A stretch of 64,000 nucleotides of DNA from Albula goreensis (lineage: Eukaryota > Chordata > Actinopteri > Albuliformes > Albulidae): NCBI GenBank assembly GCA_022829145.1, contig CM040741.1, positions 48,065,180 through 48,129,179 on the forward strand, given 5' to 3'. Every line of letters starts with the position of its first letter. Position 1 is the stretch's first letter. The notes under the pieces are model-generated. The model saw nothing but the letters and a program-made list of their open reading frames with translations, made no database searches and had not been told where the DNA came from. Below, piece by piece: positions 13,825 to 20,005 of the stretch. Both the position numbers and the translations under genes were made by a program.

Positions 13825-16800
13825 TTACACAGTGAAGAGCAGGTGCCCAGAGAAGAAGCTATCAGAGGTCATACCGTTGCCCCCAAAGTTTGCCTCCAAC
13901 CAAACGCGATCTCCCTGCTGCAGCTCCAGTGCAGTGCCACCAGAACTGGAGATGAAGCCGTTCTGCTGGGTGGTGAAGGAGTGCACTATTATTTCGCCGT
14001 TACGCCGCAGATCAACATTGCCCACATTCTGATACAGAGTGCAGAAGAAGTAAAATTGGTACACGCCAGACAGCGCGCAGGTGAACACCCCTGTCGCTTG
14101 GTTGTAATGATTCTGCCCATTGTAGATGACCTCCCGGAACACAATGACTTGATTAGGGTTGGGGTAGTTGTAGCCAAGACGCACCGCAAAGGCTGACCGC
14201 TGATTGCCAGGACCTGGGGGGCCAGGGGGGCCAGGGGGACCAGGGGGCCCTCTCAGACCTGGGGGACCTGCATTGGGTGGAAGTTGGGGGGTCAAATATT
14301 CATCCAACCACTAAAGGTCCACCTGTTTCTATCCAAATTTAATCTACAGTCTTGTTTTATGACTCATGTAGTTAACTTAATTAAATACTGCTCAACTGTT
14401 ATGCAACACATTTACAGACAAACTGTCACATTCCATATTCTATGCTTTTCAGCATACAGGCACACACAGACATGCATGGAGCTTTGTCTGTTGTATATTC
14501 TGAGGTGCTGAGTCTGCAGTGCTGTCCAATGTATTCACTCTGTATTTGGTTATTTTCTTCAAAATTATTATCCATTTCTGTGTTCATGTTCAGAAATTCT
14601 CTATCCTTACATTTTGCTATGCCACTTCTTTTGTCAAATTAGCCTTGTTTCAGAAAACTCTTTCACCTCAAAAATCTGTCAGTCAACCTTCAACGACAAC
14701 AATGTCCTTTCAACTAGCTGTGGCATCCAATTTTAGAATTTGTAGAAAGTTTCATAAGACCCTTATTACCTCGTTGTCCTGGAGCCCCCTGTGGTCCAGG
14801 TGGTCCTGAGAGGTGAGAACAGCCTGAAATACAAAAATATAAAAATTCAACCAGATATGTGCAATTGAAGGAAGTCTTCCCCAGTCAGCTGAGTAGAAGG
14901 AGCTGGATTTGTTCTGTAGAATTTACAGAGAATCCTGACAAACTAAGCAGGGTTAGATTTTGGGCATTTGAAAAATCAGTGCTCTTCATCCATAATAACA
15001 GACATTCAGGTCAAATGTCAGATGAAGACTCTCCAGGGTTGGATTTGACATGGGTGATTTTACATAAGATCTTGAGAGACTTGATTGGTGAGATTGAACA
15101 TGGGTTTTGATGCAAGCAAGCAAACAATCTTCTGTCCTCTAACCTGAAATCCGTTGATATCAATCTGGTTGTCATCTGGGTCTGTAACGTCAAACATCAC
15201 AAATGAGAAAGTGATGGTGACAGCAAAGTGTGTTGTAAAGTATATGTGTGTGTGTGTGTGTGTGTGTGTGTGTGTGTGTGTGTGTGTGTGTGTGTGTGTG
15301 TGTGTGTGTGTGTGTGTGTGTGTGTGTGTGTGTGTGTTTTCATCATTCTGTGTTTCCTTAACTAGAATAAATTGGCTTGTAGATGCTAATAAGGTAGCAG
15401 TTTTTTTATATACTTTTAGGTTTTAGAGAGGAAATACCATAAAGGGGACTGATACCCAGAGGGCTTGTGTGTGTCTGTTTGTGTTTGTGTGTGTGGAGTG
15501 GAGTGGGAGGAGGTTTAAGTAAGTAAATGGATCTAATAGCAGGGAGGATGTGTGGGAAACTCACAGTCTTCAGTCCAGGGTGTGAGGTCAAATTCAGGAA
15601 TGGCTCCACAGCGGGTGTAGCCAGACCCACGAGGGCGGAACAGAAAGGGGTCCGTGGGGACGTCTCTGATGCCAGTGTTGTCACAGATGATACGAGCCAA
15701 AGAGACCCTGGCAAGGGAAGCTCTTTGTCTCTCGGTGAAAACTCCTTCTTTCTCCCACCACAACCTAAAATGATTATCAGGGAGATATAATTGACATTAT
15801 TAACATGCTCATTTAATTTTACTGGATCAGACAGAGACCTGTGGTGGAGGTAACAGTGACTTTAGGCCCATACACCACAGTGATAAACTACCACATTATT
15901 CAACCCTGAATATTTTTTACACCTCTGAATTAAAATATCTGCCCCCCCCCATCTCACCTGTCTCCCTGGCGGATCTTCTGAAATTGGGTGGCAATGAGAC
16001 AGGCAAAGAGAGGTCCCACACGGCCTCCAGGGACAAAGGGCTCTGAGACCCCACCCAGCCACACGTCAATATTTTTAGGGGAGCCATACAGCCACAGAAG
16101 TCTTCTGGCCAGGTCAGTGTTGTTCATGACTTGAGCCAGCTGCTCCAATGTCTGGGGCTCCGACAGGCCGCAGAATCTACGCCATGCATTGTAGCCTGGA
16201 GTGTGCACAGGGACAGGTGAAAAGATTACATCAATTTGAGTCAGACGCTATACAGAGAGATTAAATAGAGAAGACAGGCAGTGGGGTGCAGGACTGGACA
16301 AAATGCACAGATGAACATATGCTGACCTGGGGACCCTGACCTGAGGGGGAGGCACAATGAGGGAGAGGTGGAGGAGGTGAAGTGGGGGAGAGATTATGGA
16401 GGAGATTCAGTGAAGTACAGGTAGAGGACGTGCAGGGGAGCAGAGATGGAGAAGGTGCAGTGAGGGAGAAGTGGTAGGGATTTAGTGAAGTAGAGGTGAA
16501 GGAGGTTCAGTACTGTTGAAAGTAATTCTCACCAGGGATTCCATGGTCACGCCCACGCTGCATGTTCAGAGCCCCCAGGTCCAGTGCCAAACGACTAGTG
16601 AACTGGAACAGCCTGTCACGGAGCGCCTCCACCATCATGTGATCCTGTGTGTTGAGCTTAGCAGGACGGCCCACCAGTCCCCGAATCAGAGGGTCTATTC
16701 CACCTGCAAGGAGAGGGAGAACTGAGTTATCTGCTGAAGCTGTGTTGGTAAAGAAGACCCCGCCCCCAACAAAAGTATGTATGTATGAAATCTATCTTAC

Positions 16801-19800: not shown

Positions 19801-20005
19801 TTAAAGGACAATAAGACACTTTGAACATAACATATCAATATTAATTATAGATTCTAAGCTGGTGCCAGGTGTAAAAGTAGTCTAGCTGTTTTGAGCCCTC
19901 CTGCTGTACTGAACACAGGATGCTTGAGGCTGACTCACCTGCAGAAGACTGGCTACAGACAGCCAGGTATAGCCCCATCGCGAGGAGGTATGTAAGGCAA
20001 GTCAT
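13825..20005 (-). CDS. Secreted animal haem peroxidase with C-terminal collagen stalk and C1q domain
   Basis: Fourteen coding exons: 20005-19939, 19623-19536, 19423-19248, 19127-18995, 18751-18622, 18487-18281, 18045-17685, 17597-17437, 17175-16917, 16703-16533, 16195-15958, 15764-15565, 14823-14770, 14267-13825. All borders keep phase, giving 895 aa. Residues 1-20 are a signal peptide, followed by a propeptide. Residues about 150-730 are an MPO/EPX/LPO-type peroxidase oxidising halides with H2O2. Visible sites: distal Gln229, Asp232 and His233 (GQWNDHD), Ca loop TAFLD, catalytic Arg391, haem-ester Glu394, proximal His489 (FAHLAIQPF). The MPO sulfonium Met is Asn395. Residues 731-732 are Cys-Cys. 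Residues 737-766 are Gly-X-Y triplets and the remainder is C1q ([20 protein letters not shown]). The first 12 exons are near certain. The C1q join rests on phase, splice sites and the lack of any other start. mpx and epx/lpo orthology was not separated. Confidence 0.85.
15245..15337. repeat. (TG)n microsatellite in intron 12 of the peroxidase gene
   Basis: A pure TG run of about 46 units. It lies in the intron joining the last peroxidase exon to the collagen exon, so length changes would not touch the coding sequence. Confidence 0.95.
18569..18621. repeat. (AAT)n/(AACAAT)n microsatellite beside a donor site
   Basis: AAT and AACAAT units abut the 5' splice site of peroxidase exon 5. On the minus strand the intron begins GTATTATTATT directly after the exon ends at 18622. 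Confidence 0.85.

What the first reader, a model, noticed from the sequence alone, without database searches (positions are those of the whole stretch)
13825..20005. Haem peroxidase fused to a collagen-C1q module in one reading frame
Seen directly: twelve peroxidase exons keep phase throughout, and the twelfth ends ...GAAGACT|GTGAGT in phase 1. The next exons downstream (54-bp Gly-X-Y exon at 14823-14770, C1q exon at 14267-13825) have clean acceptors and need exactly phase 1, giving 895 open codons. The C1q part has no ATG or signal peptide of its own, and no poly(A) signal was seen between the two parts. Known: C1q domains trimerise on collagen stalks and bind varied ligands, while MPO/EPX/LPO peroxidases make antimicrobial hypohalous acids. 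Inference: a secreted trimeric peroxidase that could be delivered to C1q targets. I do not recall a described MPO-family protein with this architecture, but could not search.
Basis: partly seen in the sequence, partly recalled or inferred. Interest (0 to 1): 0.9.

Follow-up and report, generated by a model that had tools for sequence, protein, structure and literature searches.

The report
Frame-switching fish peroxidase with C1q tail
A fish relative of the white-blood-cell enzyme myeloperoxidase carries a collagen–C1q recognition tail, and a 38-base cassette exon appears to switch the reading frame so that one gene can make the enzyme either with or without that tail.

Summary
The architecture is real: all 120 listed hits (of 220) to the C-terminal part carry haem-peroxidase and C1q domains (117 named, all fishes), three on contigs too short for an intron-bearing gene. 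Ten full-text searches listed no paper describing it.

Skipping it gives peroxidase–collagen–C1q (895 aa). Including it shifts the frame: the same collagen exon becomes a short tail ending ...QDNEVPQV* 15 nt into the last exon (765 aa), resembling tails of annotated C1q-less fish peroxidases. In eels, cyprinids and characins, short tails and collagen frames fit one DNA in two frames for up to 20-24 codons; shuffles reach at most 9.

The same genome holds two natural controls: a copy about 110 kb away with ruined C1q but intact peroxidase, cassette and short tail, and a chromosome-4 paralogue with C1q and no cassette. The catalytic residues tested are present; MPO's Met243 is Asn. Isoform use, assembly and targeting are untested.

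The parts
15565..20005 (-). Peroxidase exons 1-12 (20005-19939, 19623-19536, 19423-19248, 19127-18995, 18751-18622, 18487-18281, 18045-17685, 17597-17437, 17175-16917, 16703-16533, 16195-15958, 15764-15565): signal-like N-terminus, propeptide region and animal haem peroxidase domain
   Evidence: Exon boundaries and phases; PF03098 E 5e-190; best solved relatives myeloperoxidase (E 5e-234), lactoperoxidase and eosinophil peroxidase chains
15144..15181 (-). 38-nt cassette exon (split codon plus 12 codons, [13 protein letters not shown]); length 2 mod 3, so inclusion shifts the downstream frame
   Evidence: Five tails of C1q-less fish peroxidases match here (tblastn against this window, E 3.7e-6 to 3e-3); coordinates and splice sites; 38-nt homologue in the third gene copy L020:6412-6449
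14770..14823 (-). Shared 54-nt exon read in two frames: collagen frame ([17 protein letters not shown]) when the cassette is skipped, [18 protein letters not shown] when it is included
   Evidence: two-frame compatibility with relatives
13825..14267 (-). Last exon: rest of the collagen repeat and the C1q domain in the long frame (stop at 13827-13825)
   Evidence: PF00386; C1q signature pattern (recalled)
14253..14267 (-). Start of the last exon in the short frame: VPQV then TGA (14255-14253); the C1q sequence then becomes 3' untranslated
   Evidence: similar ends NEIPQV, NEVPQA, NKVPEV in relatives
15246..15337 (-). 92-nt CA repeat (transcript strand) in intron 12, 64 nt upstream of the cassette exon; possible splicing regulator (idea only)
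13511..13516 (-). First AATAAA downstream of the C1q stop, candidate poly(A) signal for both isoforms

Best explanation
This is a ray-finned-fish myeloperoxidase/eosinophil-peroxidase-type gene with a frame-switching 3' end. Skipping the 38-nt cassette exon joins exon 12 in phase 1 to a collagen exon and a C1q exon, making an 895-aa peroxidase-collagen(11 Gly-X-Y)-C1q protein. Including the cassette shifts the frame, so the same exons encode a short hydrophilic tail that stops 15 nt into the last exon, making a 765-aa C1q-less peroxidase whose stop should be safe from nonsense-mediated decay. Shown: the exon anatomy, the occurrence of both endings in relatives, the survival of the short frame in a sister copy whose C1q is ruined, and the conserved catalytic residues. 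Inferred: that both isoforms are made from this gene; that the long one trimerises through C1q/collagen and is held at surfaces or matrix so that it releases oxidant locally; that the short one is the granule/secreted Mpx-like form.
For: Exact exon phases. Both domains in 120/120 listed hits, in 57/120 listed peroxidase hits and in 54/81 hits of the Amia-seeded search. Fusion proteins of 868-894 aa on contigs of 2,768-3,133 nt (P0080, P0102, P0110). Cassette matches tails of C1q-less fish peroxidases. Short isoform 765 aa, ending NEVPQV*. Two-frame runs, always at the same offset: Anguilla 24 and 14, Gymnothorax/Conger 24, Myxocyprinus 23 and 11, carp/grass carp 20, Salminus/Colossoma 24 and 22, two smelt-order pairs 11 each; maxima of 1000 shuffles per pair 6-9. 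A triplet able to carry the short-frame stop in 31/35 collagen-bearing clade A long forms against 18/68 in clade B. Gene models P0069, P0108 and P0146 chain cassette, shared exon in the short frame and C1q sequence. Same genome: L020 keeps an open peroxidase (705 codons of exons 2-12, no stop), a 38-nt cassette and a short tail ...GQENEVPQI*, while its cassette-skipped frame stops five codons on and its C1q is broken; L019 (C4) has collagen-C1q behind a 194-nt intron with no cassette match. Catalytic residues conserved.
Against: No transcript of this species was examined, so use of the cassette is inferred. In one search only 8 of 39 other short tails gave a two-frame run of at least 11; the other 31 did not (e.g. 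Megalops 6, salmonids 4, Cyprinodon 5-6, gar 7), some perhaps because no close long relative was in the set. Among relatives outside this genome I had proteins only, so two-frame coding there is compatibility, not DNA. No short and long protein were shown by annotation to be isoforms of one gene. The cassette's downstream intron flank is only 49% identical between the two C1 copies. An ATTAAA at 14343 could end transcripts before C1q. Trimerisation, ligands and enzyme activity are untested; Met243 is Asn and Ca-site Ser174 is Gly.
Confidence: 0.82

Rival explanations
1. Constitutive fusion: only the 895-aa peroxidase-collagen-C1q protein is made; the 38-nt cassette is an unused relic.
For: The clade B paralogue in the same genome (L019) is a fusion with no cassette match, so the fusion can exist alone. 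The cassette donor CAG/GTTAGA matches 7 of 9 consensus positions, and its downstream flank is poorly conserved between copies (49%).
Against: The cassette keeps its 38-nt length, splice sites and open frame in L020, where the C1q is dead. Its upstream intron flank is 82% identical between the C1 copies against 51-74% for the ten exons whose upstream flank is not near-identical (95-100% for the other four). Tails of the same design are annotated in many fishes as the C1q-less protein.
Confidence: 0.08
2. Short peroxidase only: the C1q module is a 3' UTR remnant and the fusion is a gene-prediction artefact.
For: L020 shows this outcome. Flounder MPO in print is a 770-aa protein described with signal peptide and peroxidase domain (PMC9908613, passages read).
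Against: The C1q frame here is intact and 75% identical to Anguilla P0001 and 70% to Aldrovandia P0003; the Gly-X-Y frame is uninterrupted; fusion proteins are encoded on contigs too short for the intron-bearing gene; 135 distinct listed protein clusters have both domains (120 + 10 + 5).
Confidence: 0.05
3. Two neighbouring genes (peroxidase, then a C1q gene with its own promoter) accidentally joined by phase.
For: An ATTAAA at 14343 between the parts; nothing else found.
Against: No start codon in the open frame before the C1q exon and no AATAAA between the parts; the joined architecture recurs in Amia, many teleosts and two teleost paralogue clades.
Confidence: 0.02
4. The C1q tail acts only as an oligomerisation device (stable trimer or higher oligomer), not as a targeting module.
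For: C1q/TNF-fold domains trimerise (adiponectin, collagen X; recalled; sequence relatives). Some acanthomorph members have no or few Gly-X-Y triplets but keep C1q.
Against: Sequence cannot separate the two; C1q-domain proteins often bind microbial ligands (recalled).
Confidence: 0.3

Closest known systems
Vertebrate MPO / EPX / LPO (chordata peroxidases, PF03098)
   Same: Homology over residues 27-729 to a solved MPO proform, and the core haem-pocket residues tested except the MPO-specific Met.
   Different: The MPO, LPO and EPX chains in PDB end within a few residues of where the fish protein goes on into collagen-C1q or the short tail; Asn at MPO Met243.
Teleost Mpx / 'myeloid-specific peroxidase' / eosinophil peroxidase-like short forms (e.g. 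P0142 carp, P0158 ayu)
   Same: Same peroxidase clade; tails compatible with cassette plus frame-shifted collagen exon.
   Different: Annotated as peroxidase only; the flounder MPO passages I read mention no C1q isoform or frame switch.
Collagen-C1q proteins (adiponectin, collagen X and VIII, C1QTNF5)
   Same: Collagen stalk followed by C1q (recalled); best solved relatives of the C1q part.
   Different: No enzyme domain; here a peroxidase of about 700 residues precedes a short 11-triplet stalk.
Dual-frame genes such as CDKN2A (p16/ARF) (recalled)
   Same: One exon read in two frames by alternative exon choice.
   Different: Here the switch is a 38-nt cassette and one of the two frames is a collagen repeat.

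Membership tests
Animal haem peroxidase (PF03098) | Profile match over the full domain | tested here: met
   Residues 145-704, profile 1-530/530, E 5e-190
Animal haem peroxidase (PF03098) | Distal Gln/Asp/His/Arg, proximal His with Arg/Asn, haem-linking Asp94 and Glu242 (MPO numbering recalled) | tested here: met
   Q229, D232, H233, R391, E394, R486, H489, N574; each shared by 216-219 of 223 aligned rows
Myeloperoxidase proper | Met243 for the sulfonium haem link (recalled) | tested here: not met
   Asn395 in the window; N in 187 and H in 29 of 223 rows
C1q domain (PF00386) | Full-length profile and aromatic signature (pattern recalled) | tested here: met
   Residues 774-892, profile 1-127/127, E 5e-26; pattern at residue 792
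Collagen triple-helix repeat (PF01391) | Score over curated cut-off | tested here: inconclusive
   22.7 bits against 27.2; 11 uninterrupted Gly-X-Y triplets seen directly in the sequence
C1q/TNF-type trimer | Homotrimeric assembly | not testable with these tools
   Needs protein
Dual-coding frame-switch gene | One exon open in two frames, each with relatives that have the product | tested here: met
   (DNA level in the window only; protein compatibility elsewhere)
Dual-coding frame-switch gene | Both transcripts made from the same gene | not testable with these tools
   No RNA reads available

The most novel reading that the evidence does not exclude
The granulocyte peroxidase gene of ray-finned fishes, including the orthologue used as the zebrafish neutrophil marker mpx, is a conserved dual-coding switch. 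A 38-nt cassette exon chooses between a free peroxidase and a C1q-bearing multimeric peroxidase by reading one collagen exon in two frames, and this arrangement has lasted since before eels and carps diverged. The C1q tail itself may go back to the jawed-vertebrate ancestor (a horn shark model has peroxidase-Sushi-C1q) and have been lost in the tetrapod MPO/EPX/LPO line.
Probability: 0.45. Interest if true: 0.88.

Novelty: new variant of a known kind. Interest (0 to 1): 0.78.

Why it matters
Peroxidases such as MPO release diffusible oxidants that also harm the host, and how oxidant is kept near its target is an open question. A peroxidase with its own recognition or oligomerisation stalk, made or not made by one splice choice, would be a direct answer in fishes and is testable in zebrafish or carp. 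If it holds for zebrafish, mpx mutants, antibodies and reporters would have to be read anew, since the locus may make two different proteins. It would also be a clear case of a collagen repeat constrained in two reading frames over long evolutionary time.

Tried and rejected
Considered and rejected: accidental joining of two genes (and conservation); gene-level gain and loss of C1q as the sole explanation of short and long forms. On the 61-row tree the C1q label needs 19 changes against a shuffled mean of 20.5 (155 of 500 shuffles as low). That fits alternative endings and incomplete gene models better than many gains, though losses do occur (L020). Considered: the short-tail match is chance; rejected by shuffles and by L020.

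Not settled: whether the shark fusion is the same event. Its C1q is 41% identical both to the window C1q (alignment score 235) and to adiponectin (188), and the tree warns of long branches. Zebrafish itself was in none of the listed names; that its mpx behaves alike is inference from carp and other cyprinids. The comparison of intron flanks is muddied by near-identical blocks between the two C1 copies. No structure prediction was run, since it would not decide isoform use or trimerisation in solution.

Literature: ten searches. I saw the listings only (titles and starts of abstracts), and three listings were cut (30 of 36, 15 of 161 and 20 of 219 papers). I read passages of PMC5938384, PMC13337447, PMC6754371, PMC8948951, PMC9908613 and PMC4420034; none describes the fusion in those passages.

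Full report
WHAT IS THERE. Pfam places an animal haem peroxidase domain at residues 145-704 and a C1q domain at 774-892; the collagen match is below its cut-off, but 11 Gly-X-Y triplets are plain in the sequence. There is no AATAAA between the two parts, though an ATTAAA lies at 14343, and the open frame before the C1q exon holds no start codon.

IS THE FUSION REAL. A protein search with residues 680-895 returned 220 proteins at E<=0.001. The 120 listed all carry both PF03098 and PF00386; 117 bear names, all of fishes, among them eels, herrings, carps, characins, a bony tongue, many spiny-rayed fishes and the bowfin Amia. The three unnamed ones (P0080, P0102, P0110; source lgn, standing for 1, 10 and 2 sequences) encode 868-894 aa on contigs of 2,768, 2,932 and 3,133 nt. 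The window gene spans 6.2 kb, so I read these contigs as transcripts; this is inference. A search with the peroxidase part alone listed 120 of 1,728 hits; 57 of the 120 have C1q and 63 do not. A search from Amia gave 81 hits, 54 with both domains, including a horn shark protein with peroxidase, Sushi and C1q. In all, 135 distinct listed clusters have both domains.

THE MISSED EXON. Several C1q-less fish peroxidases end in tails such as ...EADPDDNQSGISGFQGPTPSQALSAQGESQENEVPQA (eel P0124) or ...DNLVDINGFQVQTQTSGQQVNKDSQDNEIPQV (tarpon P0122). The first part of these tails matches the window at 15181-15144, inside the intron between exon 12 and the collagen exon: a 38-nt exon with AG and GT borders. 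Because 38 is 2 modulo 3, its inclusion moves the frame. The collagen exon 14823-14770 is then read [18 protein letters not shown], and the last exon begins VPQV followed by TGA at 14255-14253. The predicted short protein is 765 aa, the length of P0122 and P0124. The stop lies in the last exon, so nonsense-mediated decay would not be expected (rule recalled), and the C1q sequence becomes 3' untranslated.

TEST OF TWO-FRAME CODING IN RELATIVES. For other species only proteins were available, so I asked whether one DNA could encode the end of a short protein and the collagen of a long protein in two frames. Forty short tails were tested, the window's among them (three tails over 80 residues were dropped, and tails under 12 residues were not entered). 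Of the 39 others, 8 gave an unbroken run of at least 11 codons ending at the stop; the other 31 did not, including Megalops, salmonids, Cyprinodon and gar. In the ten pairs outside the window the runs were 24 and 14 (Anguilla), 24 (moray short against conger long), 23 and 11 (Myxocyprinus), 20 (carp short against grass carp long), 24 and 22 (Salminus short against two Colossoma long forms) and 11 twice (ayu and smelt short against smelt long), always with the same frame offset. The maximum among 1,000 shuffled tails per pair was 6-9. Counted by eye on the tails printed, the inserted segment is one split codon plus 12 codons (38 nt) in eels, Megalops atlanticus, carps, characins and, with an assumed boundary, ayu and smelt; Megalops cyprinoides has 10 codons. 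Three gene models of other fishes (P0069 Anguilla anguilla, P0108 Synaphobranchus, P0146 Acnodon) chain cassette, shared exon in the short frame and C1q sequence, so these pieces share a locus there too.

TWO PARALOGUE CLADES. A 61-row tree of the peroxidase part (60 rows chosen by me out of 222 fetched proteins, plus the window) separates two teleost clades, here called A (window, mpx-like) and B. In clade A, C1q-bearing and C1q-less rows interleave; over the whole tree the label needs 19 changes against a shuffled mean of 20.5, as expected if many are alternative endings. I then assigned long forms to clades by best BLAST score. Among those with at least four Gly-X-Y triplets, 31 of 35 in clade A have, somewhere in the stalk, a triplet that can hold the short-frame stop, against 18 of 68 in clade B. 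Rows with fewer triplets (20 of 55 and 23 of 91, thyroid-peroxidase-like rows among them) were set aside. Relatedness of the rows inflates this contrast.

CONTROLS IN THE SAME GENOME. The window lies in a 932-Mb assembly. Searching it with the C1q domain gave 31 matches; after the window itself the closest is C4:37.57 Mb (74% identity), and there is a fragment at C1:48.20 Mb. Both lie in peroxidase genes. The C1 copy (L020, about 110 kb from the window gene, opposite strand) has an exon 1 with a similar signal-like start, exons 2-12 that join to 705 codons without a stop, a 38-nt cassette with proper splice sites, a 42-nt shared exon, and an intact short tail ...RGRDNGVDINTFQVHSQDDVSEGQENEVPQI*. 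With the cassette skipped, its frame stops five codons on, and its C1q is broken by stops and frameshifts. So the short frame is kept where the long frame is dead. The C4 copy (L019, clade B by similarity to P0003) has exon 12, then a 194-nt intron in which three cassette peptides find no match, then a collagen exon and an intact C1q. A peroxidase search of the same genome found these three loci plus more distant relatives on C9 and one weak match on C1. One genome therefore shows a switchable, a short-only and a cassette-free fused state.

HOW IT MOST LIKELY WORKS. The peroxidase part should be active: Gln91, Asp94, His95, Asp96, Arg239, Glu242, Arg333, His336 and Asn421 (MPO numbering, recalled) are all present, each shared by 216-219 of 223 rows. 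Met243 is Asn, and Ca-site Ser174 is Gly. I therefore expect oxidation of bromide, thiocyanate or iodide more surely than chloride; this is inference. The C1q part resembles adiponectin, collagen X and C1q itself, all trimeric (recalled), so the long form is probably a trimer with a stalk of about 10 nm, able to stay on a surface or in matrix. The short form would be the free Mpx-like enzyme. The choice would lie in use of a cassette exon whose upstream flank is 82% identical between the two C1 copies, against 51-74% for ten other exons (four more lie in near-identical blocks at 95-100%); its downstream flank is only 49% identical. It follows a 92-nt CA repeat; whether that matters is only an idea.

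WHAT IS KNOWN. Flounder MPO (PMC9908613, passages read) is a 770-aa protein described with signal peptide and peroxidase domain; PMC4420034 (passages) mentions minor subfamilies of fish peroxidases. Neither passage set mentions C1q. Ten full-text searches listed no title or abstract start that describes the fusion or the frame switch; three listings were cut short, and most subscription journals are not held, so a description elsewhere is possible.

VERDICT. The finding is real, conserved, and present in databases under generic names. The new element is the 38-nt frame switch that gives one collagen exon two meanings. Isoform use, assembly and targeting are untested.

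Noticed in passing
P0190 (Sardina pilchardus): A clade B peroxidase ends in a SUEL rhamnose/galactose-binding lectin domain (E 5e-22) in place of C1q: a second lectin-type fusion in the same family.
   Followed up: partly
P0197 (Heterodontus francisci): Horn shark peroxidase model with a Sushi domain, a few collagen-like triplets and C1q, 1,024 aa; could mean that the C1q tail predates bony fishes, or an independent fusion.
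   Followed up: partly
window exons 2, 3, 4, 7, 8, 10 against L020: These exons are 94-100% identical between the two C1 copies, several with near-identical intron flanks, while the other exons are 56-88% identical; suggests gene conversion between copies about 110 kb apart in opposite orientation.
   Followed up: partly
15143-15060, and P0141 (Conger): Reading through the cassette donor gives [15 protein letters not shown]..., which resembles the annotated conger tail [19 protein letters not shown]: a possible third ending, or an annotation artefact with a conserved intron start.
   Followed up: no
43859-44850 minus; 51759-53534 minus: Neighbouring genes: S-adenosylmethionine synthetase exons (PF02773, PF02772) and an inositol-phosphatase-type gene with SKICH domain (PF22669, PF17751).
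   Followed up: no
G000:C9:30403667-30405160: A single 510-aa open frame 44% identical to the peroxidase, possibly peroxidasin-like (guess).
   Followed up: no
short tails of Megalops P0121/P0122, Synaphobranchus P0126, Anguilla P0127/P0131, Aldrovandia P0132: These forms have Ile where the two-frame-compatible tails have Val at the last-exon start; Ile would remove the collagen Gly in the long frame, which would fit release from two-frame constraint (but L020, with dead C1q, still has Val).
   Followed up: partly
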